From Conexibacter sp. CPCC 206217 (GTDB lineage Bacteria > Actinomycetota > Thermoleophilia > Solirubrobacterales > Solirubrobacteraceae): a DNA stretch of 64,000 nucleotides. A model generated the notes under the pieces. That model saw only the letters and a program-made list of their open reading frames with translations, made no database searches and was not told where the DNA came from. Within the stretch, counting starts at the first letter, position 1, and every line of letters starts with the position of its first letter. Shown here piece after piece: positions 5,319 through 35,122 of the stretch. Made by a program: the position numbers and the translations under genes. The DNA is taken from positions 310,001-374,000 of the forward strand of contig NZ_JAUTDO010000004.1 in the NCBI RefSeq assembly GCF_030646165.1, written 5' to 3'.

Positions 5319-7688
5319 CTACTTCACCTTGAGCGTGCGCACCCCGAGCGTCTTGAGGTTGCCGGAGCGGTCGAACGTCGAGACGCTGACGCGGTAGGAG
5401 CCCTTCGGCAGCTTCGCCGTCGGGACGCTGACCGACCAGCTGTCCTTGCCTCTCGCGGCGATCGCGATGCCGCCGGCCAGCGGAACCGCCTTGCTGAGCT
5501 TGCCCTTCGCCGTGACGAAGCGGCCCTTTCTCTTGCCGGCGAGTCTGAAGACCTCGACGAGCGTCTTCTGCACGCCGCCCGCGGCGACGCCTCTGCCGTC
5601 GGCGCAACCGGCGTCGGTCGCGACGCCGGAGACGGTCAGCTTCGACTTCTGCACGGCCAGGCGCGACACCGTCACGCTCGGCTTGAGCGTGTCGAGGCAG
5701 GCCGCCTTGGCCGTCGGGGTCGTCGTCGTGGCGCTCGTCGGCGCCGTCGCCGGCGGGTCGACGATCGGTCCGGGCGGGATCGACGGCGGCCCGTCGGGAC
5801 CGGGGTAGATCGGCTCGACGTCGGTCACGCCGGCGCCCGGAGGGGCGGTCGGAGCGGCCGACTGCGGCGTCTCCTGGAACATCAGGTCCGACAGCTGGAT
5901 CGAGCCCAGCGCCGGCGAGCTGAAGCCGAGCTGAACCGAGACGATTCTCGTCAGGTCGACGCCCGCGAAGCCCCACAGCGGGATGCGGATGCCGTTGAGG
6001 ACGATGTGTCTGTACGTCGTGCCGATCGACGGCTCCAGCGACGTCGTCCATCTCGCGGCACGCGTCGTGGCTCTTCTGCCGGACGCGTCGATCAGCGTCA
6101 CGTCGAAGTCCTGCGTGGCGGAGTTCGGCGTGTAGCTGTCGCCCGCCGGGTTGCGCGGGTCGTTGCGGTTCATCGCGGCGCGCATGTCCAGCACGCCGTA
6201 TCTCGACACGTCGACCGGCGCACCGGCACGGCCGAGGTACGCCGTCAGCGACGCCGGCTGATCCCACGCGATCGTGTACTGCGTGTTGATCGAGCGGTTG
6301 TTGCCTCTGTCGGGGCAGAGCGGGTAGAGCGAGACGCTCGCGGTGCAGACCTGGAAGGTCGTCAGCCCGTTCGTCGTGATCGGGCCGCCGGAGGCGGTCG
6401 TCGTCGTCAGCAGCGGGTCGACCGGGGTCATCGGGTCCGGCTGCGGATCGATGATCGACGGCGGCTTCAGCACGTCGAAGCGGGCCGCGGCCGGCGCGAT
6501 GTAGGAGGTCTTGACCTCCTCCGCGAGGCCCTTGCCGCTCTCCAGCGGAGCAGCCGACTCGGGCAGCGTCACAGCCCCGGTCATGATCGGGTCGAACGCC
6601 TTCTCACCGCCGACGTAGCGGCGCATGAACGAGTTCATCAGCGCCGCGCCGACGCGACGCTGGTCGCCCGGCGTCAGGCGGGCGCTCGTGTCCGTGCCGC
6701 GGGTGCAGGCCGGGTCGCCGGCGCGCGAGAAGTCGTCGCCGGTCCAGACCGTGTTGAAGAAGTTGTGGTCGGTGCCCTGCGTGTACCACTGGATCTTCGC
6801 GAACGTGTCCGGCGCGTCGGTCGGGTAGCGCGAGTTCTGGTAGAAGCGCGCGCCGTTGAGGCTGGAGACGTCACCGTCGCAGGCCGGCAGCAGCACGGCG
6901 TAGTTGGTGCCGTACGGCATCTTGTAGGCGCTGGAGCTGATCGGCGCCAGCGCGAGCACGCCGTCGAGCACGATTCTCTGGAAGCCGCTTCTGACTCTCA
7001 GGTTACGCGTGTAGCCGATGAAGTCGGTGACGGCGTCACCACCGCGCGAGTGACCCATCATGCCGATGCCGTCGGCGAAGTCGAGTCTGCCGGTCAGCTT
7101 CGTGCCGACGGTGTGGTCGGGTTCGCCGGGGACGTACGGTCCGGCGCCGTTGTTCCAGCGGAACAGCAATTCGAGGTTGGCCTGGATGATCTGCGAACGC
7201 GCGTTGGCGCCGGCATCTCTGAAGGCGTTGTCGAAGTTGGTCGTGTTCGCCTCGACGCTCATGACCGTGTAGCCGTGGCTGGCGAGGTTCTTCGCCATGT
7301 AGTCGTAACCCGCGTAGGAGCGGATGTCCGTCTGCGTCGGGGTGCCGTCTTCGTCGTAGACGTCGTCGCACACTCTTCTGTCGGGTGACGGCGAGCCGAT
7401 GCAGACGCCGTGGCGGCCGTGCACGAAGACGACGATGCGCGCGAAGTCGACGTCGTCGGCATACGTGATCGAGCCTCGCAGCGGGACTCTGGTGGTGCTG
7501 ACGCCGTCGGCCAGCGTCATCAGCAGCGAGCCGGCTTCGTAGTCGATCTTCTTGACCGGGTGCGGACCCGACGCCAGCGGGTCCGGGACGTCGGCGGCGG
7601 TGGCCGCCGAGGCCGTCATCGTGAGCGCGACGACGGCGCCGGTCGCGGCGGCGAACAGCCGCGACCGTCTGAACGAGATCCTGCGCAA
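5319..7688 (-). CDS. Exported alpha/beta hydrolase (lipase/cutinase-like), copy B of a tandem pair
   Basis: This 789-aa protein is co-linear with its neighbour at 2672-5065 and mostly identical: signal peptide 1-31, HGRHG near 90, nucleophile Ser214 in GHSRGG, acid Asp271/273 and His308. Length differences are confined to the linker near residues 440-520 and the Pro/Thr-rich stretch before the C-terminal Ig-like domain. The start is TTG at 7688 preceded by AAAGG; no ATG lies in the right place. Separate hairpins follow each copy, so the two are probably independent transcription units. The divergent neighbour is glpD. Confidence 0.75.
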   Translation of the reverse strand: MRRISFRRSRLFAAATGAVVALTMTASAATAADVPDPLASGPHPVKKIDYEAGSLLMTLADGVSTTRVPLRGSITYADDVDFARIVVFVHGRHGVCIGSPSPDRRVCDDVYDEDGTPTQTDIRSYAGYDYMAKNLASHGYTVMSVEANTTNFDNAFRDAGANARSQIIQANLELLFRWNNGAGPYVPGEPDHTVGTKLTGRLDFADGIGMMGHSRGGDAVTDFIGYTRNLRVRSGFQRIVLDGVLALAPISSSAYKMPYGTNYAVLLPACDGDVSSLNGARFYQNSRYPTDAPDTFAKIQWYTQGTDHNFFNTVWTGDDFSRAGDPACTRGTDTSARLTPGDQRRVGAALMNSFMRRYVGGEKAFDPIMTGAVTLPESAAPLESGKGLAEEVKTSYIAPAAARFDVLKPPSIIDPQPDPMTPVDPLLTTTTASGGPITTNGLTTFQVCTASVSLYPLCPDRGNNRSINTQYTIAWDQPASLTAYLGRAGAPVDVSRYGVLDMRAAMNRNDPRNPAGDSYTPNSATQDFDVTLIDASGRRATTRAARWTTSLEPSIGTTYRHIVLNGIRIPLWGFAGVDLTRIVSVQLGFSSPALGSIQLSDLMFQETPQSAAPTAPPGAGVTDVEPIYPGPDGPPSIPPGPIVDPPATAPTSATTTTPTAKAACLDTLKPSVTVSRLAVQKSKLTVSGVATDAGCADGRGVAAGGVQKTLVEVFRLAGKRKGRFVTAKGKLSKAVPLAGGIAIAARGKDSWSVSVPTAKLPKGSYRVSVSTFDRSGNLKTLGVRTLKVK

Positions 7689-7842
7689 AGGAGAGCCTTT
7701 CTCGGACGAGGGATCGCTTTCTTAACCCCCACTAAGCCGATGTGCCAAGACATTGATCCAAGTTCGGACCGGCTGTCGGTGCTGGCACGTCTGCGTTGTT
7801 GCACACGGTCCATTGCGGCGCGTCGGCCTACGTGATTGCCCG
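7689..7842. repeat. Duplicated upstream region, copy B
   Basis: This is the counterpart of 5066-5217. Similarity stops at about 7842, just before the glpD coding region, which places the boundary of the duplicated unit and argues that glpD starts downstream of this point. Confidence 0.75.
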
Positions 7843-7849
7843 TCCGCGC

Positions 7850-9601
7850 ATGGGTACCTTGAGTGAGACCCCCTCTCGAGACGAGCCGCCCGTGACCGAC
7901 CTCAGCATCCTCAACTCCCAGCAGCGCGACGCCGCCCTGCAGCGGATGGCGGACGAGACGTTCGAGGTCGTCGTGATCGGCGGCGGCGTCGTCGGCACCG
8001 GCGCGGCGCTCGACGCGGCCTCGCGCGGGCTGTCGGTCGCGCTCGTGGAGGCGCGTGACTTCGCCGCCGGCACGTCGAGCCGCTCCAGCAAGCTGATCCA
8101 CGGCGGCCTGCGCTATCTCGAGCAGCTCGACTTCAGACTCGTGCGCGAGGCGCTGCGAGAGCGCAGACTGCTGCTCAACACGCTCGCGCCGCACCTCGTC
8201 AAACCGGTCCCGTTCCTCTACCCGCTGGAGCACCACGTGTGGGAGCGCGGCTACGTCGGCGCCGGCATGCTGCTCTACGACGAGCTGGCCGGCCACGACG
8301 GCGTGCCGAGACACCGGCACCTGACCAAGCGCCAGGCGCTGCGGATCGCGCCGGGGTTGAAGCCGGATTCGCTGATAGGCGGGATCCAGTACTACGACGG
8401 CAGAGTCGACGACGCGCGCCACACGCTGACGGTCGCGCGCACCGCCGCCCACTACGGCGCCGCGGTCGCCAACAACGCGGCCGTCGTCAGCTTCCTGCGC
8501 GAGGGCGAGCGCGTGACGGGCGTGCGCGTGCGCGACGTCGTCAGCGGCAGAGAGATCGACGTGCGCGCGCAGCAGGTCGTCAACTCGACCGGCGTCTGGA
8601 CCGACGACCTGCAACACCTCGTCGGCGAGCGCGGCAAGTTCAGAGTGCGCGCCTCCAAGGGCGTCCACCTCGTCGTCCCGAGAGATCGCATCCAGCTCGA
8701 CACCGGGCTGATCCTCAGAACCGAGAAGAGCGTGCTGTTCGTGATCCCGTGGGGCCGCCACTGGATCGTCGGCACGACCGACACCGACTGGGAGCTGAGC
8801 AAGGCACACCCCGCCGCCAGCAGGACCGACATCGACTACGTGCTGGAGCACGCCAACAGAGCGCTCGCGCAGCCGCTCACGCACGCCGACGTCGAGGGCG
8901 TCTACGCGGGCCTGCGGCCGCTGCTGTCGGGCGAGTCGGAGTCGACCTCGCAGCTGAGCCGCGAGCACAGCGTCGCGGTGCCGGTGCCCGGCCTCGTCGC
9001 GGTCGCGGGCGGCAAGTACACGACCTACCGCGTGATGGGCAAGGACGCGATCGACGCCGCCGCGCGCGGGATCGACCGCTCCGTGCCGCCGTCGGCGACG
9101 CACCACACGGAGCTGCTGGGCGCCGAGGGCTACTGGGCGCTGTGGAACGGCCGCCACCGGATCGCGGCCGAGAGCGGCCTGCACATCGCGCGCGTCGAGC
9201 ACCTGCTGAACCGCTACGGCTCCCGCATCGACGAGCTGCTGGCGCTGATCGCCGAGCGCCCCGAGCTGGCCGAGCCGCTGCCGGGCGCCGACGACTACCT
9301 GCAGGTCGAGGCCGTCCACGCCGCCTCGCACGAGGGCGCGCGCCATCTCGACGACGTGCTCGCGCGCCGCACGCGGATCTCGATCGAGACGTTCCACCGC
9401 GGTGTCGAGACCGCGCCGACCGCGGCGGCGCTGATGGGCAGGGTGCTCGGCTGGAGCAGAGCCGAGATCAGAACAGAGGTCGACACCTACACGGCCCGCG
9501 TCGAGGCCGAGCGACGCTCTCAGGAGCAGCCCGACGACAAGGCCGCCGACGAGGTCCGCACCGCGGCGCCGGACCTGCTGGCCGGCGTGACGGAGAGCTG
9601 A
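7850..9601 (+). CDS. glpD: Glycerol-3-phosphate dehydrogenase (FAD-dependent, aerobic)
   Basis: This 583-aa flavoprotein oxidises sn-glycerol 3-phosphate to dihydroxyacetone phosphate at the membrane, passing electrons to quinone. The dinucleotide-binding motif IGGGVVGTG lies near residues 43-51, followed by the family signature SSRSSKLIHGGLRYLEQ. A DAO-type core and the C-terminal helical domain (residues ~400-560) are complete. Start uncertain: ATG 7850 is used because the duplicated promoter DNA of the divergent gene ends at 7842; GTG 7892 is an alternative, and neither has a good ribosome site. No glpF or glpK is adjacent. Confidence 0.9.
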   Translation: MGTLSETPSRDEPPVTDLSILNSQQRDAALQRMADETFEVVVIGGGVVGTGAALDAASRGLSVALVEARDFAAGTSSRSSKLIHGGLRYLEQLDFRLVREALRERRLLLNTLAPHLVKPVPFLYPLEHHVWERGYVGAGMLLYDELAGHDGVPRHRHLTKRQALRIAPGLKPDSLIGGIQYYDGRVDDARHTLTVARTAAHYGAAVANNAAVVSFLREGERVTGVRVRDVVSGREIDVRAQQVVNSTGVWTDDLQHLVGERGKFRVRASKGVHLVVPRDRIQLDTGLILRTEKSVLFVIPWGRHWIVGTTDTDWELSKAHPAASRTDIDYVLEHANRALAQPLTHADVEGVYAGLRPLLSGESESTSQLSREHSVAVPVPGLVAVAGGKYTTYRVMGKDAIDAAARGIDRSVPPSATHHTELLGAEGYWALWNGRHRIAAESGLHIARVEHLLNRYGSRIDELLALIAERPELAEPLPGADDYLQVEAVHAASHEGARHLDDVLARRTRISIETFHRGVETAPTAAALMGRVLGWSRAEIRTEVDTYTARVEAERRSQEQPDDKAADEVRTAAPDLLAGVTES

Positions 9602-27767: not shown

Positions 27768-27943
27768 CGTGCCGCTCCCCGTCTCGCTCTGGAATGTAGT
27801 GCTGATTGCGCCCAGAGCGCGGCGCCCAGGTCAACCCCCGCCGCGACGGGTTGGCACGCGGGCGCGGGCGCCCGACTGCGTTTCTGACGCGCGGATCCCG
27901 GACAGCTTTACGGCCGGAAGCAGGGACGGCGGAGGAGAGAGCG

Positions 27944-29464
27944 ATGAGCAGCGTTCAGACGGGAACGATCAGATCGCAGATCCCGGCACGGCTCGACCGG
28001 CTGCCGTGGTCGCGCTGGCACTGGATGATCGTGATCGGGCTCGGGACCGTCTGGATCCTCGACGGACTCGAGGTCACGATCGTCGGCAACGTCGCCGGCC
28101 GGATCGCCGAACCGGACTCCGGGCTCGACATCAGCGCCGCGCAGATCAGCGGCTTGGCCGCCTCGCTCTACGTCGCCGGCGCCTGTTGCGGCGCGCTCTT
28201 CTTCGGCTGGCTGACGGACCGGCTGGGACGCAAGAAGCTGTTCCTCGTCTCGCTCGGGGTCTATCTGTTCGCGACCGCGCTGACGGCGATCTCGATGGAT
28301 CCGCTGTGGTTCTTCGCCTGCCGCTTCCTGACCGGCTTCGGCATCGGCGGCGAGTACGCGGCGATCAACTCCGCGATCGACGAGCTGATCCCCAGCCGCG
28401 TGCGCGGCCGCGTCGACCTGGTCATCAACGGCAGCTTCTGGATCGGCGCGTTCATCGGCTCGTTCCTGTCCGTCTTCTTCCTCGACGAGAGCATCTTCGC
28501 GGCCAACGTCGGCTGGCGGCTGACGTTCGCGCTCGGGGCGATACTCGCGGTCGTGATCCTGCTGGTCCGCCGGCACGTGCCGGAGAGCCCGCGCTGGCTG
28601 ATGATCCACGGCCGCGAGGAGGAGGCGGAGGCGATCGTCGCCGAAGCCGAGCGGCGCGTGCGCGAGGAGACCGGCGAGGAGCTGCCGGAGCCCGACAGCA
28701 CGATCACGATCCGCCAGCGCCGCTCGATCGGCTTCGGCACGATCGCGAGAACGGTCTTCAAGCTCTATCCGAAGCGGACCGTGCTCGGGCTGTCGCTCTT
28801 CATAGGGCAGGCGTTCCTCTACAACGCGATCACGTTCGGCTACGCGACGATCCTGATCACCTTCTTCGACGTCCCCTCCGGCGACACCGGCTACTACTTC
28901 GCCGCGATCGCGGTCGGCAACTTCGTCGGGCCGCTGCTGCTCGGCCCGCTGTTCGACTCGGTCGGGCGCAAGGTGATGATCTCCGGCACCTACATCGTCT
29001 CCGGCGTGCTGCTGCTGGTGACCGCCTACCTCTTCAAGCAGGAGGTGCTGACCGCGACGACGATGACGCTGTGCTGGTGCGTCGTGCTGTTCTTCGCCTC
29101 GACCGGCGCCAGCTCGGCCTACCTGACCGTCAGCGAGATCTTCCCGATGGAGACGCGCGCGATGGCGATCGCGTTCTTCTACGCCGTCGGCACCGCGGTC
29201 GGCGGCATCACCGGCCCGCAGGTCTTCTCGCGCCTGACGGAGACCGGCAAGGTCAACGACGTCGCGCTCGCGTTCGTGATCGGCGCGATATTGATGATCG
29301 CCGCGGGCCTCGTCGCCGCCTTCCTCGCGGTCAGAGCAGAGCGCCAGAGCCTGGAGAACATCGCCAAGCCGCTGACGGCGGAGGACGCCGAGCAGGAGGC
29401 GGCCGGCTCGGACCGCAAGGGGACGTCGTCGAGCGGGCCGGCCGCGCCGGCGGCGGCGACGTAG
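27944..29464 (+). CDS. MFS transporter, sugar-porter-like
   Basis: This 506-aa membrane protein has 12 predicted segments. Signatures are GWLTDRLGRKK in loop 2-3, RFLTGFGIGGEYAAINSAIDEL in TM4-5 and VPESPRWL before the long central loop, typical of the metabolite/sugar:H+ symporter part of the MFS. GGAGGA lies seven bases before the ATG at 27944. The C-terminal 40 residues are charged and low-complexity. Substrate could be a sugar, aromatic acid or other organic acid; none is favoured by the neighbours. Confidence 0.85.
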   Translation: MSSVQTGTIRSQIPARLDRLPWSRWHWMIVIGLGTVWILDGLEVTIVGNVAGRIAEPDSGLDISAAQISGLAASLYVAGACCGALFFGWLTDRLGRKKLFLVSLGVYLFATALTAISMDPLWFFACRFLTGFGIGGEYAAINSAIDELIPSRVRGRVDLVINGSFWIGAFIGSFLSVFFLDESIFAANVGWRLTFALGAILAVVILLVRRHVPESPRWLMIHGREEEAEAIVAEAERRVREETGEELPEPDSTITIRQRRSIGFGTIARTVFKLYPKRTVLGLSLFIGQAFLYNAITFGYATILITFFDVPSGDTGYYFAAIAVGNFVGPLLLGPLFDSVGRKVMISGTYIVSGVLLLVTAYLFKQEVLTATTMTLCWCVVLFFASTGASSAYLTVSEIFPMETRAMAIAFFYAVGTAVGGITGPQVFSRLTETGKVNDVALAFVIGAILMIAAGLVAAFLAVRAERQSLENIAKPLTAEDAEQEAAGSDRKGTSSSGPAAPAAAT

Positions 29465-29466
29465 GC

Positions 29467-29799
29467 TCAGCGGTCGCGCAGGTCGCGCGCGGTGCGTCTG
29501 GCGCGGCGGACGAGCTTCGCCTGCTCCAGGCGCTGCAGCATCCGCGGTCTCGGGACGGGCAGCATCGCGACCTCGGCGGCGGTGATCGTCAGCGTGACCG
29601 CGCGCTCGGCGATGCGGCCGACCTCGGGCGCGTCGACGAAGCGCTTGCCCTCGCGCGTGTCGACGACGATCCCGTCGAAGATGTTCTCGCGCACGTTGTC
29701 CTGCACGCGCGCGACCTTGCCGATCTCGGCGCCCTCGCTGTCGCGCACGAGCGTCCCGCGCTTGAGCGCCTTGTAGGCGATCGCGTGCCCGTCGTCCAT
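29467..29799 (-). CDS. PRC-barrel-like domain protein, coupled to tetR
   Basis: This 110-aa protein contains GTLVRDSEGAEIGKV and IFDGIVVDTREGKRF, matching the paralogue at 25878, then a basic C-terminal helix (QRLEQAKLVRRARRTARD). Its ATG overlaps the TGA of the upstream TetR gene (TGATG), so translation is probably coupled. Its stop lies 2 bp from the stop of the convergent MFS gene. The basic tail suggests nucleic-acid or membrane contact (inference). Confidence 0.7.
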   Translation of the reverse strand: MDDGHAIAYKALKRGTLVRDSEGAEIGKVARVQDNVRENIFDGIVVDTREGKRFVDAPEVGRIAERAVTLTITAAEVAMLPVPRPRMLQRLEQAKLVRRARRTARDLRDR

Positions 29800-30428
29800 C
29801 AGTCCCTGCGCTCCTTCTTGCGCTTCGCCCGCACGACCCCGTCGAGCAGGATCCGCAGGTACTGGTCGCTGATCCGCTCCAGGTCGGGCTGCTCGCCCGG
29901 GACGTGCCAACGGGCGACCGAGAAGATCGTCTCGCGGATCAGGTGGTAGGCGATCCGCGCGTCCAGCCCGCCGCGGAACTCGCCGTCAGCGATGCCGCGC
30001 TCGAGCACGGTCGTCCACGCCCGCTCGATCGTGCGCTCCGCGTCGGCGAGGTGGGCCAGCCGCGGGAGGGCCGCGAGCTGGCGGCGGTCCTGCTCGTAGA
30101 CGACGGCCGCAGCACGATGGCGCTCCAACGCCATCAACGACGCGTTCGCGAGCGCTTCGAACGCCTCCCGCGGCGGGCCGCCGGCGGCGACGATCGCCTC
30201 GTAGGAGGTCAGCACCTCGCTCAGCAGCGGGCTGATGATCGCGTCGGCGATCGCCTCCTTGGAGGGGAAGTGGTGGTAGAGGCTGCCCGACAGGATCCCC
30301 GCCGCGTCAGCGATGTCGCGCACCGTCGTCGACGCGTAGCCGTCACGCGCGAACAGCTCCGCGGCAAGTCCGAGCACCTCGGCCTTGCGTCTGCCAGGCA
30401 CCGGCGTCCGCTCCAGTCTCTGTGCCAT
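29799..30428 (-). CDS. TetR-family regulator (lipid-catabolism-like)
   Basis: This 209-aa protein has an HTH (about 15-60) with GILSGSLYHHFPSKEAI, a form shared by KstR2/FadR-like TetR repressors, and a long helical effector domain. ATG 30428 is used; GTG 30434 is two codons upstream. A perfect 16-bp palindrome lies 19 bp upstream, so it is very likely autoregulated. It is co-transcribed and coupled with the PRC-barrel gene. Other targets must lie elsewhere, because the divergent gene encodes only a lipoprotein. Confidence 0.83.
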   Translation of the reverse strand: MAQRLERTPVPGRRKAEVLGLAAELFARDGYASTTVRDIADAAGILSGSLYHHFPSKEAIADAIISPLLSEVLTSYEAIVAAGGPPREAFEALANASLMALERHRAAAVVYEQDRRQLAALPRLAHLADAERTIERAWTTVLERGIADGEFRGGLDARIAYHLIRETIFSVARWHVPGEQPDLERISDQYLRILLDGVVRAKRKKERRD

Positions 30429-30446
30429 ATCCACAAGCCTAACTCA

Positions 30447-30496: not shown

Positions 30497-31252
30497 ATGA
30501 AGCGGTCGCCACAGCTGCGGCGTGCGCGTACACGCGCCATGGCTCTGCGCGTGCGCGTGCGCGTTCCGGCACTGGCGCTCGCGACGGTGTCCGCGCTCGT
30601 CCTCGCCGGCTGCGGCGGTGGCGGCGACGACTTCGGCGCGACGATCCCGCACGGGACGACCGCGACGACGCCGGGCGCGCCGAGACGTTGGTCGCCGCCC
30701 GCGCTGCGACTGGAGCGCGGCAGAGGACGTGAGATCGGCGCCGAGGCACGACTGGAGTACGCGGCCTCGGGCCCGGCGCTGCCGACCGGCTTCGTGCCCG
30801 GCGGCGTGCCGGTCGGGACGCGCTCGGGTCCGTGCGTCGTGCCGGAGCCGACCGACGCCCAGCGCACGCAGATCCAGACGACCGCCGAGCGCCAGACGCC
30901 CGACGGCTCCGTCGTGCCGATCGACGACGACCACATCCTGCTCGCGGACTGCGGCGACGAGGGCGTCTGGGCGTTCGTCGCCTGGACGGAGGGGACCGCA
31001 GAGGGCAGACAGACGGTCTGGATAGACGAGTTCCGCTACGACGGCGGCGACCACTGGACCGGCACCGCGAGAGGCGTCCAGCCCGGCTGCCGCATGCCCC
31101 GCGCCGCGGCCGCCGCCTGGCAGATCGACGTGACCGAATGCCCGCCCCCGCCGACCCCGCCGCCACCGACCCCCACGATCCCCGGCCCGACCCCGCAGAT
31201 CCCCTCCCCGAGACCGGACCAGCTCCCGGCTCCGGGCACCTCGCGGGCCTGA
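30497..31252 (+). CDS. Putative lipoprotein, unknown function
   Basis: This 251-aa protein has a long basic N-terminus, a hydrophobic stretch (ALALATVSALV) and a lipobox LAGC with Cys39, followed by Gly and Asp residues. The mature part has three more Cys and no domain I know. It ends in a Pro-rich tail (PPPPTPPPPTPTIPGPTP) that may cross the cell wall. ATG 30539 is an alternative start that would still keep the lipobox. It is divergent from the TetR gene and may share its operator. Confidence 0.65.
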   Translation: MKRSPQLRRARTRAMALRVRVRVPALALATVSALVLAGCGGGGDDFGATIPHGTTATTPGAPRRWSPPALRLERGRGREIGAEARLEYAASGPALPTGFVPGGVPVGTRSGPCVVPEPTDAQRTQIQTTAERQTPDGSVVPIDDDHILLADCGDEGVWAFVAWTEGTAEGRQTVWIDEFRYDGGDHWTGTARGVQPGCRMPRAAAAAWQIDVTECPPPPTPPPPTPTIPGPTPQIPSPRPDQLPAPGTSRA

Positions 31253-31493: not shown

Positions 31494-32816
31494 ATGACGG
31501 CGGCCCCGTATCTGGTGATCGGCGAGGGGACGCTCGCGGACGGGGTACGGAGCGCGCTGGAGGCGGCGGGGCAGAACGTGCGGCTGCTGCGACGGCCAGC
31601 CGATCGCGAGCTGCGGCGCACGCTCGTGCACGACACGCAGGCGGCGGTCGTGATCAACCGCGACGACATCCGCGCGCTGCGCGACGCGCTGCTGATCGAG
31701 TACCTGCGGCCGGGCGTGCGGCTGGTCGTGACGATCTTCGACCGCACCGTCGCCGACCAGCTGATCCGCGCGATCCCCAACTGCAACGTCGTCTCGATGG
31801 CGGACGCGTCGGTCGGCGCGATCGTCGGGCCGTGCGTCGATCCCTCGCTGGTCGCGCTGCACCGCACCGACGGCGACGAGCTGATCGGCGTGCGCGACGG
31901 TGCCGACGAACGGCCGCACGTCGCGCCCTACCCGCACCACCGGCCGAGCGCGGCGCGGCGGATCGAGCGCAGGCTGCGGGCGCAGTTCCGCCCGCCCGAC
32001 CGCGCCTCCTACCTGCTGCTCGTCTCGCTCTTCGGCCTGCTCGGGCTCGCGCTGCTGGAGACGCTGCTCGCGCTCGCGACCGACCACGAGACGCTCGTCG
32101 CCGCGCTCTACGAGGCGACGAAGGCGATCACGACGGTCGGGCCGAGCGGCTTCTTCGAGCACGGCTCGGTCTGGGCGCAGCTGTACGGGATCGCGTCGAT
32201 GACGCTCGCGCTGGTGCTGACGGCCGTCTTCACGGCGGCGCTCGTGAACCGGGTGCTCAACCGCCGCCTGACCGGGATCTTCGGCACGCGCACGATCCCG
32301 CGCACCGACCACGTGATCGTCGCCGGCCTCGGGCAGGTCGGCTTCCGTCTCTGCCTCGAGCTGCGCGCGCTCGGGATCGACACCGTCGCCGTCGAGCAGG
32401 ATCCGAACGCCCCGAACGTCGCGCTCGCGCGCGGGCTGAAGCTGCCGGTCGTGATCGGTCGCGGCGGCGACCGCTACGTGCTGGAGCGACTCTCGCTCGG
32501 CCGCGCGCGGGCGCTCGCGGCGGTCACAAGCGACGAGCTGGCCAACATCTCGATCAGCGTCGCCGCGCTCGCCGTCGAGCCGGGGCTGCGGACGGTGCTG
32601 CGCGCGGGCTCAAACGAGGTCACGCGCGAGACCGCCGCGCTGTTCCCGATCGGCGTCGCGCAGGACCTCGACCGCGTCGCGGCCGCCGCCGTCGCCGCGA
32701 CCGCGATCGGCCACGAGCTGGCGCACGCCTTCATCCACCTCGGCGAGACCTACATCGAGACGACCGGCGGCGGGATCGAACGCTTCCCGCCGCCCGCCGC
32801 TGCCGCCCAGGCCTGA
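31494..32816 (+). CDS. TrkA-N/RCK protein with two transmembrane helices and a degenerate K+ channel pore
   Basis: This 440-aa protein has an N-terminal Rossmann-like TrkA-N domain (about 5-145), a membrane segment (172-194), a re-entrant pore-like stretch (203-221), a second segment (228-252) and a second TrkA-N/RCK domain (272-~410) with GLGQVG as dinucleotide site. The pore reads TTVGPSGFF where potassium channels have TVGYGD, so classical K+ selectivity is doubtful. The order RCK-TM-P-TM-RCK resembles castor/pollux-like or dual-RCK channels more than Trk peripheral subunits. The start is ATG; no neighbour suggests the ion. Confidence 0.8.
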   Translation: MTAAPYLVIGEGTLADGVRSALEAAGQNVRLLRRPADRELRRTLVHDTQAAVVINRDDIRALRDALLIEYLRPGVRLVVTIFDRTVADQLIRAIPNCNVVSMADASVGAIVGPCVDPSLVALHRTDGDELIGVRDGADERPHVAPYPHHRPSAARRIERRLRAQFRPPDRASYLLLVSLFGLLGLALLETLLALATDHETLVAALYEATKAITTVGPSGFFEHGSVWAQLYGIASMTLALVLTAVFTAALVNRVLNRRLTGIFGTRTIPRTDHVIVAGLGQVGFRLCLELRALGIDTVAVEQDPNAPNVALARGLKLPVVIGRGGDRYVLERLSLGRARALAAVTSDELANISISVAALAVEPGLRTVLRAGSNEVTRETAALFPIGVAQDLDRVAAAAVAATAIGHELAHAFIHLGETYIETTGGGIERFPPPAAAAQA

Positions 32817-32858: not shown

Positions 32859-34433
32859 TCAGACGTGAACCGCGACGCCGTCGGCGGCGCCGTGGCCGCG
32901 TCTGACGAGCAGCGCGATCCCGGCGCTCATCAACGCCAGCACGGCGCTGACGTACATCGCCGTGTGAAGCCCGCTCATGAACGCGTTGAGCGACGCGTCG
33001 GTGATCTGGCGCGACAGCTCGGCGGGCATGTCCGGCGTGACCGGCGCGACGCCCTGGGCGATCAGCTCGGTCTGACCCTCGACCGCTCTCGCCGCCGCGG
33101 CCGGGACGCCCGCGTCGGAGAGGTTGCCGGCCAGCACCGAGCCGACGCCGGAGACGATCACGGAGCCGAGCACCGCCGTGCCGAGCACGCCGCCGAGCTG
33201 GTTCGCCGTCGACTGCAGGCCGCCCGCGAGGCCGCCGCGCTCGACCGGCGCGTTGCCGACGATCGCCTCCGTCGAGGCGACGATCACGAGCCCCATCGCG
33301 ACGCCGATCAGCAGGTAGAACGGCCACTGGCTGCCGTAGCCGGAGTCGACCTCCAGGCCGGTCAGGGCGAGGAAGCAGCCGGCCAGGATCAGCATCCCGA
33401 GGCAGAGCGGCACGCGCGGGCCGAACCTCTCCGTCAACAGACCGCCGAGCGGGGCGCTGATCGTGAACGTCGCCGTCAGCGGCAACAGCCGCACGCCGGT
33501 CTGCACCGGGCTGTAGCCGTGCACGTTCTGCAGATACAGGCCGACGAAGAAGAGGATCCCGAAGAGCGCGAAGAAGCCCGTCACGACGAGCACGACGCCG
33601 GCCGACAGCGAGCGGTTCTTGAACAGCTCCAGCGGCAGCAGCGGATCGCTCGTGCGCGCCTCCCACAGCACGAACAGCACCAGCACGACCAGCGCCGCGC
33701 CGCAGCAGACGATCACGTACGCCGATCCCCAGCCGTGGTCCTGCGCCTTGATCACGCCCCAGATCAACAGGAACAGCCCGCCCGACAGCAGCCCGACGCC
33801 GGGGATGTCGAAGGAGCCGACGTGCGTCTCGTCCTTCGACTCGCGCACCCACCGCAGCGTCACCGTCGCCGCGATCAGGCCGAGCGGCAGGTTCAGCAGG
33901 AAGATCGACTCCCACGAGACGTGCTCGACGAGCAGGCCGCCGACGATCGGGCCGGACGCGACGGCGAGCGCGCTCGCGCCGCCCCAGATGCCGACCGCGC
34001 GGTTCAGCTCGGCCGGCGGGAACGCCGCGCGCAGCAGCGCGAGCGTGTTCGGCATCAGCAGCGCGCCGGCGACGCCCTGCAGCACGCGCGCGGCGACGAG
34101 CACGCCGATCGACGTCGCCAGCGCGCACAGCAGCGAGGTCAGCGCGAAGCCGACGATCCCGGCGAGGAAGACCTTCTTGCGACCGAAGCGGTCGCCGAGC
34201 TTGCCGCCGACGATCAGCAGCACCGCGAGCGCGAGCAGATAGCCGTTGGTGACCCACTGCAGACCAGCCAGCGACGCGTCGAGGTCGGCGGCGATCGTCG
34301 GGTTCGCGACGCCGACGACGGTGCCGTCGAGCGCGACCATCATCACGCCGAGCGCGACGGCGGCGAGCGTGAGCCAAGGATTGTCGCGCCCGCTCGTGCG
34401 CGTGAGCGGAGCCGCGTCGACTGCTGAGTTCAT
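32859..34433 (-). CDS. DHA2-family (EmrB/QacA-like) MFS efflux transporter
   Basis: This 524-aa membrane protein has 14 predicted segments, motif D1 LDGTVVGVANPTIA near 35-48 and GGKLGDRFGRKKVF in loop 2-3. It ends in a short basic cytosolic tail. It is divergent from a TetR gene 80 bp away, the common repressor/pump arrangement, and is a second such pair in this window (compare 10428). Substrates unknown; a drug or lipid-like compound is likely from the family. Confidence 0.88.
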   Translation of the reverse strand: MNSAVDAAPLTRTSGRDNPWLTLAAVALGVMMVALDGTVVGVANPTIAADLDASLAGLQWVTNGYLLALAVLLIVGGKLGDRFGRKKVFLAGIVGFALTSLLCALATSIGVLVAARVLQGVAGALLMPNTLALLRAAFPPAELNRAVGIWGGASALAVASGPIVGGLLVEHVSWESIFLLNLPLGLIAATVTLRWVRESKDETHVGSFDIPGVGLLSGGLFLLIWGVIKAQDHGWGSAYVIVCCGAALVVLVLFVLWEARTSDPLLPLELFKNRSLSAGVVLVVTGFFALFGILFFVGLYLQNVHGYSPVQTGVRLLPLTATFTISAPLGGLLTERFGPRVPLCLGMLILAGCFLALTGLEVDSGYGSQWPFYLLIGVAMGLVIVASTEAIVGNAPVERGGLAGGLQSTANQLGGVLGTAVLGSVIVSGVGSVLAGNLSDAGVPAAAARAVEGQTELIAQGVAPVTPDMPAELSRQITDASLNAFMSGLHTAMYVSAVLALMSAGIALLVRRGHGAADGVAVHV

Positions 34434-34513: not shown

Positions 34514-35122
34514 ATGACGACCGACCCGCCACCACCTCCGTCTGCCCGCGCGGACGCCCGCCGCAACCGCGACGCCGTGATCGCGGCGGCGATGCGCGTG
34601 CTGTCCGCGGATCCGGAGGCCAGCATGCGCGAGGTCGCCGACGCCTCGGGGCTGACGCGCACGACCGTCTACCGCCACTTCCCCAGCCGCGAGGAGCTGC
34701 TGCGCGCGATCTTCGAGCTGGTCGCGCGCGAGGCCGACGCGGCCGCGCGCGAGGCGACCGCCGGCGATCCCGGCCTGGAGCAGGTGATGCGGGCGGTCGC
34801 GCGCAACGCGGTCGCGCTCGGTCAGCGCTTCCGCTTCCTCGCCGGCTACGACCAGACCGTGCTCGGCGAGGCCGCGTTGACGGCCGGCGACGACCCGCTG
34901 CTGCGCTGGATCGAGGTGGCGCAGGCGCGCGGCGAGACGCGCGCGGAGCTGCCGCCGGCGTGGCAGCTGCGGGCGCTGCGCAGCCTCGCCACCGGCGCGA
35001 TCGAGGCGGTCCTCGCCGAGCAGCTCGACGCGGCGGAGGCGCAGCAGCTGCTGGCCGCGACGCTGATCGCGGCGTTCGCGGCGCCGAGCGCGGGTGACAG
35101 AGACGACCCCGCAGTACGCTGA
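34514..35122 (+). CDS. TetR-family regulator, divergent from DHA2 pump
   Basis: This 202-aa protein has an HTH (about 20-65, EVADASGLTRTTVYRHFPSREELL) and an Ala-rich ligand domain. The ATG lies 80 bp from the divergent pump start. It probably represses the pump. The following LuxR-type gene is in the same direction about 85 bp downstream but may have its own promoter. Confidence 0.85.
   Translation: MTTDPPPPPSARADARRNRDAVIAAAMRVLSADPEASMREVADASGLTRTTVYRHFPSREELLRAIFELVAREADAAAREATAGDPGLEQVMRAVARNAVALGQRFRFLAGYDQTVLGEAALTAGDDPLLRWIEVAQARGETRAELPPAWQLRALRSLATGAIEAVLAEQLDAAEAQQLLAATLIAAFAAPSAGDRDDPAVR

What the first reader, a model, noticed from the sequence alone, without database searches (positions are those of the whole stretch)
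31494..32816. RCK-TM-pore-TM-RCK protein with TVGPSG in place of TVGYGD
The protein keeps the two-helix channel layout and the TTVG of a K+ filter but has Pro-Ser-Gly instead of Tyr-Gly-Asp. It carries one nucleotide-binding TrkA-type domain on each side of the pore. This could be a non-selective or anion-type ligand-gated channel of undescribed specificity.
Basis: partly seen in the sequence, partly recalled or inferred. Interest (0 to 1): 0.6.

Follow-up and report, generated by a model that had tools for sequence, protein, structure and literature searches.

The report
K+-channel relative with proline filter
This gene makes a membrane protein built like a nucleotide-controlled potassium channel, but the part that normally selects potassium has been replaced by a conserved proline motif in a whole bacterial protein family, so it probably passes other ions or is gated in an unusual way.

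Summary
Window 31494-32816 (+) encodes 440 aa with an N-terminal RCK-like domain, TM1, pore loop, TM2 and a C-terminal RCK (TrkA_N) domain. The filter reads TTVGPSG (aa 213-219). It is not a local mutation. None of 80 homologues surveyed has G-Y/F-G. The Pro is invariant in a large core, including Streptomyces and Rhodococcus members.

The pore is homologous to K+ channel pores: its profile finds K2P, NaK and MthK structures, and it aligns with actinobacterial dual-RCK channels that keep TVGYGD.

Loss of YGD coincides with a charge swap. The residue equivalent to KcsA Glu71/MthK Val55 is Lys/Arg in 79 of 80, but never basic in canonical controls. An acidic residue (Glu/Asp, rarely Gln) appears in TM1. 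The filter is the most conserved pore segment, which argues against a decayed pseudo-channel.

Best reading: a tetrameric, adenine-nucleotide-gated cation channel with a non-K+-selective, one-residue-shorter filter. Selectivity, and conduction itself, are inferred. The main rival is a non-conducting RCK sensor; an anion channel is unlikely. AlphaFold runs were too poor to use. Novelty: a new variant of a known kind.

The parts
31494..32816 (+). Gene for the 440-aa RCK-TM-pore-TM-RCK protein (TVGP family)
   Evidence: ORF; orthologues of 74-81% identity in the genus and 41-60% in the order
31509..31868 (+). N-terminal RCK-like (degenerate Rossmann) domain, about aa 6-125
   Evidence: hhalign to the N-terminal RCK of dual-RCK channels, P 1.6e-13; no Pfam hit; lacks the third Gly of GxGxxG
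32007..32072 (+). TM1, about aa 172-193
   Evidence: Hydropathy of the protein and of the family
32058..32060 (+). Glu189 in TM1; E/D/Q in all 80 homologues, S/G/A in canonical relatives
32094..32132 (+). Pore helix, about aa 201-213, with Tyr206 (= MthK Y51 / KcsA W67)
   Evidence: Alignment to K+ channel pores; position map from PMC10274084
32121..32123 (+). Lys210 at the KcsA Glu71 / MthK Val55 position
   Evidence: K/R in 79 of 80 homologues; 0 of 16 canonical relatives and none of the control K+ channels
32133..32147 (+). Filter segment T214-V215-G216-P217-S218 in place of TVGYG(D)
   Evidence: Lowest column entropy of any pore segment, 0.68 bit; Pro217 invariant in 30 of 30 first-set homologues
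32184..32258 (+). TM2 (pore-lining helix), about aa 231-255, conserved FTA[AG]
   Evidence: Hydropathy; A244 invariant in 43, A248 in 41 of 43
32313..32618 (+). C-terminal RCK N-lobe (TrkA_N), aa 274-375
   Evidence: Pfam PF02254 E 1.3e-14
32325..32342 (+). GLGQVG nucleotide motif, aa 278-283, followed by Glu301 (32394-32396)
   Evidence: Sequence; same GxGxxG...D/E motif binds ADP/NAD+ in GsuK (PMC3510474)

Best explanation
The gene encodes a member of a conserved actinobacterial branch of the K+-channel superfamily. Four subunits (inferred) would form a 2TM/P-loop pore, and the two RCK domains of each subunit would form the cytosolic gating ring. The C-terminal RCK, with GLGQVG and Glu301, would bind an adenine nucleotide (NAD+, NADH, ADP or ATP) and open or close the pore; the N-terminal RCK has lost its motif and is likely structural. 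The selectivity filter is not K+-type: it is one residue shorter, ends T-V-G/D-P-N/S, and lacks the Tyr, the second Gly and the Asp. A Lys sits where KcsA has Glu71, probably paired with the acidic residue that appears in TM1. With the outer filter sites lost, the pore most likely passes Na+ and K+ non-selectively, and the Asp-containing subclade may bind divalents, as in NaK, CNG-type filters and NaKTs. Shown here: homology, architecture, conserved filter change, charge swap. Inferred: tetramer, conduction, ion selectivity, ligand, gating direction, salt bridge.
For: Pore homology: the pore profile retrieves K2P (E 2e-4), NaK, MthK and Kv pore structures almost exclusively; hhalign to TVGYGD dual-RCK channels P 5.9e-12; Ion_trans_2 hits in 7 of 16 members. 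Filter constraint: entropy 0.68 bit against 1.5-2.2 in the rest of the pore domain; T214, V215 and P217 nearly invariant. No canonical filter in 80 homologues; the family is one 43-row clade with SH-aLRT 100 (corrected labels). Pro also kept in Streptomyces and Rhodococcus plasmid members. Charge swap: K/R in 79 of 80 against none basic in canonical channels. Extracellular segments net -2.2 on average, as expected for cation entry. C-RCK keeps the motif that binds ADP/NAD+ in GsuK. Precedents: NaKTs, a proline-rich filter that is non-selective; CASTOR, a non-GYG RCK channel that conducts Ca2+.
Against: No function has been measured. No usable structure model was obtained. Some deeper relatives have no Gly in the filter at all (TVA[AG]xP), which is hard to reconcile with a normal ion-binding filter. 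A Lys behind the filter should disfavour cations unless neutralised. NaKTs and CASTOR filters differ in sequence, so they are analogies only. G006, in the same genus, lacks a close copy.
Confidence: 0.52

Rival explanations
1. A non-conducting channel relative: the pore domain is kept only as a membrane anchor and tetramerisation unit, and the RCK domains sense nucleotides or regulate another transporter.
For: The K+ filter chemistry is gone; some deeper relatives lack any filter Gly; Streptomyces relatives have lost the filter altogether (LDLFAINDPA). The genome has other K+ routes: two Ion_trans_2 channels, TrkH and TrkA.
Against: The filter is the most conserved pore segment, with invariant Pro and near-invariant T-V. 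No partner gene is conserved within about 8 kb in 21 loci.
Confidence: 0.27
2. A K+-selective channel that reaches K+ selectivity with an unusual short filter built on one Gly per subunit, as Trk/Ktr/HKT transporters do.
For: T-V-G is kept in 41 of 80, and single-Gly filters select K+ in Trk/Ktr (general knowledge, not tested here). The RCK ligand domains are of K+-channel type.
Against: Gly is replaced by Asp, Ala or Gln in 39 of 80. The outer K+ sites (Tyr-Gly) are gone.
Confidence: 0.1
3. An anion-permeable channel, with the Lys ring behind the filter attracting anions.
For: Lys/Arg at the Glu71 position in 79 of 80.
Against: Turret and post-filter loops are net acidic (mean -2.2). A conserved acidic TM1 residue could neutralise the Lys. 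One subclade has Asp in the filter. I know of no anion channel in this superfamily.
Confidence: 0.05
4. An ordinary K+ channel with a local mutation, frameshift or sequencing error in the filter.
For: None found.
Against: Independent genomes of the genus, order, class and phylum carry the same motif.
Confidence: 0.01

Closest known systems
Actinobacterial dual-RCK channels with canonical filter (about 570-650 aa, e.g. L064, L069, L085)
   Same: RCK before and after a 2TM pore; homologous pore (P 5.9e-12), N-RCK and C-RCK
   Different: They keep TVGYGD/TTGFGD, E/T/V at the Glu71 position, Ser/Gly/Ala in TM1; L064 and L069 also match TrkA_C, which the window protein does not
MthK and GsuK (RCK-gated K+ channels)
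   Same: 2TM pore plus RCK; profile matches; GxGxxG...D/E ligand motif as in GsuK RCK2
   Different: Canonical K+ filter; RCKs only after the pore; Val55 in MthK instead of Lys
NaKTs (Tsukamurella 2TM channel, filter LPMGNGPLSP)
   Same: Actinobacterial, K+-superfamily pore with a proline-containing non-K+ filter; non-selective (PMC5052707)
   Different: Small channel (123 residues cloned), no RCK, different filter sequence; the authors found no others like it
CNG channels and NaK (filters TIGETPPP and TVGDGN)
   Same: Filter departs from TVGYGD right after T-x-G; non-selective cation conduction (sequences quoted in PMC5052707 and PMC9822992)
   Different: No RCK; no Lys at the Glu71 position as far as I know (not tested)
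CASTOR/POLLUX/DMI1
   Same: Non-GYG filter (ADSGNHA) with RCK gating ring; Asp in filter as in the TVDPN subclade (PMC6697748)
   Different: Four TM, RCKs only after the pore, plant nuclear envelope; no sequence link found here

Membership tests
K+-channel superfamily (2TM/P-loop pore) | Two TM helices flanking a pore loop homologous to K+ channel pores | tested here: met
   Hydropathy, PDB profile search, hhalign
K+-channel superfamily (2TM/P-loop pore) | Fourfold (tetrameric) pore with re-entrant filter in a structure | tested here: inconclusive
   AlphaFold models have low confidence; fold search gave nothing significant
K+-selective channels | TxGYG/TxGFG signature | tested here: not met
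   TTVGPSG in the window; 0 of 80 homologues have GYG/GFG
RCK-gated channels (MthK/GsuK type) | RCK (TrkA_N) domain fused to the pore | tested here: met
   Pfam PF02254 E 1.3e-14 after TM2; RCK-like N-domain
RCK-gated channels (MthK/GsuK type) | Ligand-dependent gating | not testable with these tools
   Needs flux or patch recordings
CASTOR/POLLUX | Castor/Pollux-specific domain and AD(S/A)GNHA filter | tested here: not met
   Only TrkA_N matched in Pfam for the window protein; filter TVGPSG
NaKTs | LPMGNGPLSP filter, no RCK | tested here: not met
   Different filter, RCKs present
TVGP family (described here) | RCK-2TM-RCK of about 440 aa, V[G/D]P[N/S] filter, Lys/Arg at the Glu71 position, acidic residue (or Gln) in TM1 | tested here: met

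The most novel reading that the evidence does not exclude
A distinct class of pore in the K+-channel superfamily in which the filter scaffold is charge-reversed: a basic residue behind the filter paired with an acidic TM1 residue supports a short Pro-containing filter with a selectivity not seen before (for example Na+ or divalent-selective, opened by NAD(H) or ADP/ATP as a redox or energy sensor).
Probability: 0.22. Interest if true: 0.8.

Novelty: new variant of a known kind. Interest (0 to 1): 0.55.

Why it matters
The TVGYG filter is one of the best conserved motifs in biology. A bacterial family that has fixed a different filter, together with a charge swap behind it, is a natural experiment on what the K+ filter needs. 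NaKTs was reported as a lone proline-filter case; here the change is shared by a broad family with ligand domains attached, so selectivity and gating can be compared across natural variants (TVGPN, TVDPN, TVAAEP).

Tried and rejected
Foldseek on the pore model gave no hit with E under 4.9. The viral-contig scan found no relative. Gene-neighbourhood clustering in 21 loci found no conserved partner. The first tree run carried wrong group labels through an index slip in my script; one search has the corrected labels on the same tree. dN/dS by region was not informative because synonymous sites are restricted by very high GC. In one search one of the 27 control filters was a false regex match (L135); its true filter carries Val at the position. 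A text search for 'TVGPN' found only an unrelated paper. Local mutation or error was rejected by the homologues.

Full report
What is there. ORF 31494-32816 (+) encodes 440 aa. The window lies in contig 23 of a 5.9-Mb genome; close orthologues are in Conexibacter, so the source is a Conexibacter-like member of the Solirubrobacterales (inference from those names). The filter reads T213-T-V-G-P-S-G219. The protein has two hydrophobic segments, one strong TrkA_N domain after the second (aa 274-375, E 1.3e-14), and an N-terminal domain that Pfam misses but that matches the N-terminal RCK of related channels at P 1.6e-13.

Is it real and conserved? Yes. Orthologues in the genus are 74-81% identical and keep VGPSG. 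Roughly 70 of 201 genomes searched around the window's genome carry a strong relative (E about 1e-41 or better; my count from the table). Full-length members also occur in another family of the class and in one genome of a different class with very large genomes, and on plasmids of Streptomyces nigrescens and Rhodococcus, where the annotated copies are called only 'NAD(P)-binding protein'. Pro217 is present in all 30 members of the first set, in 55 of 80 in the extended set, which includes deeper branches, and in all five plasmid members read. None of the 80 has GYG or GFG.

Is it a channel pore? The pore profile searched against PDB sequences retrieves K2P channels (best E 2.1e-4), K2P10/K2P2, NaK, Kv-type and MthK pores; the only other protein among the 50 rows is Dok-7. 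Against actinobacterial dual-RCK channels with TVGYGD, hhalign gives P 5.9e-12 over 77 columns. Seven of 16 members hit Ion_trans_2 weakly on their own. These support a re-entrant pore by homology. Structure models were too weak to confirm it.

What changed relative to K+ channels. (1) After T-V-G the sequence goes to Pro, then Asn or Ser, and the loop is one residue shorter. (2) Using the published map Y51/W67, V55/E71, D64/D80 for MthK/KcsA (PMC10274084), Tyr206 corresponds to Y51/W67 and is kept, Lys210 corresponds to V55/E71, and the Asp of D64/D80 is gone. Lys/Arg occupies this position in 79 of 80 family members, in none of 16 canonical dual-RCK relatives (E 10, T 5, V 1), and in none of the K+ channel controls from the phylum. 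In the five plasmid members it is Arg in two and Gln in three, so it is strong but not absolute. (3) TM1 residue 189 is Glu 48, Asp 26 or Gln 6 of 80, against Ser, Gly or Ala in canonical relatives. A buried Glu189-Lys210 pair is my inference; no structure shows it.

Constraint. Mean column entropy in the family is lowest in the filter (0.68 bit), then the post-TM2 linker (1.27), TM2 (1.50), pore helix (1.56), TM1 (1.85), post-filter loop (2.0) and turret (2.23). A pore that no longer worked would be expected to lose filter constraint first. The deeper branches are less strict: one clade has TVDPN (Asp in the filter, 15 of 80), and others TVA[AG]xP or TVADxP with no filter Gly. In the tree the whole family is one clade of 43 rows with SH-aLRT 100 and a long stem (1.53); the canonical channels lie outside it, and a third set of large Streptomyces relatives lost GYG on a separate branch. 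The rooting and the deepest joins are weak.

Mechanism. The C-terminal RCK keeps GLGQVG and an acidic residue at the end of the second strand, the motif that binds ADP and NAD+ in GsuK (PMC3510474). The N-terminal RCK is shortened and lacks the third Gly, so it is more likely structural; two RCKs per subunit in a tetramer would give the eight needed for a gating ring (inference from MthK/GsuK). With the Tyr-Gly half of the filter gone, the pore should not offer four K+ sites. Literature precedents for filters that depart after T-x-G or carry prolines are non-selective cation channels: NaK (TVGDGN), CNG-type (TIGETPPP) and NaKTs. CASTOR shows that an RCK channel with a non-GYG, Asp-bearing filter can be Ca2+-selective. 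Net acidic extracellular segments (mean -2.2) fit cations. I therefore favour a nucleotide-gated, non-K+-selective cation channel at 0.52, and a non-conducting sensor at 0.27.

Context. No gene is conserved beside it in 21 loci, so it probably acts alone. In the Rhodococcus plasmids it follows an SDR oxidoreductase gene by 11-14 bp in the two intact annotations, near formate-dehydrogenase-type and nicotinate phosphoribosyltransferase genes, a weak hint at a redox link. The window's genome also has two Ion_trans_2 channels, a TrkH and several TrkA-type genes, so this protein is not its only K+ route.

Limits. Everything on ions, ligand and gating is inference. The 80 sequences are not independent. 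Literature searching covered open-licence papers only; absence of a description there is not proof of novelty.

Noticed in passing
L073, L076, L077, L079, L081-L084 (Streptomyces-like genomes): Large RCK-2TM-RCK relatives (about 650-800-aa open frames) whose filter region reads LDLFA[IV][ND][DE]PA: a separate, complete loss of the K+ filter.
   Followed up: partly
L020, L026, L027, L029, L030, L149-L151 and others: A subclade of the family has Asp in the filter (TVDPN, 15 of 80), which would put four Asp side chains at the pore as in divalent channels.
   Followed up: partly
L052-L058, L166-L183: Deeper branches have no Gly in the filter (TVAAEP, TVAGxP, TVADxP) and Arg rather than Lys at the Glu71 position; Lys goes with Pro (48 of 49) and Arg mostly with non-Pro (23 of 30).
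   Followed up: partly
L188 and L191 (Rhodococcus rhodochrous plasmids), about 7228-9386: The homologue lies 11-14 bp downstream of an SDR oxidoreductase gene, near FdhD/FdhF-type and nicotinate phosphoribosyltransferase genes; possible redox-linked operon.
   Followed up: no
window 27806-29464 (+) and 32859-34433 (-): Two MFS-type transporter ORFs flank the channel region, with TetR-like regulator ORFs near each (29799-30434 - and 34514-35122 +), by eye from the translations.
   Followed up: no
window 30497-31252 (+): A small ORF with a lipoprotein-like signal (LVLAGCGGGG) ends about 240 bp upstream of the channel gene on the same strand; not conserved next to it elsewhere.
   Followed up: partly
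G006 (same genus): One genome of the genus, 98% complete, lacks a close copy (best E 1.7e-5), so the gene is not essential to the genus.
   Followed up: no
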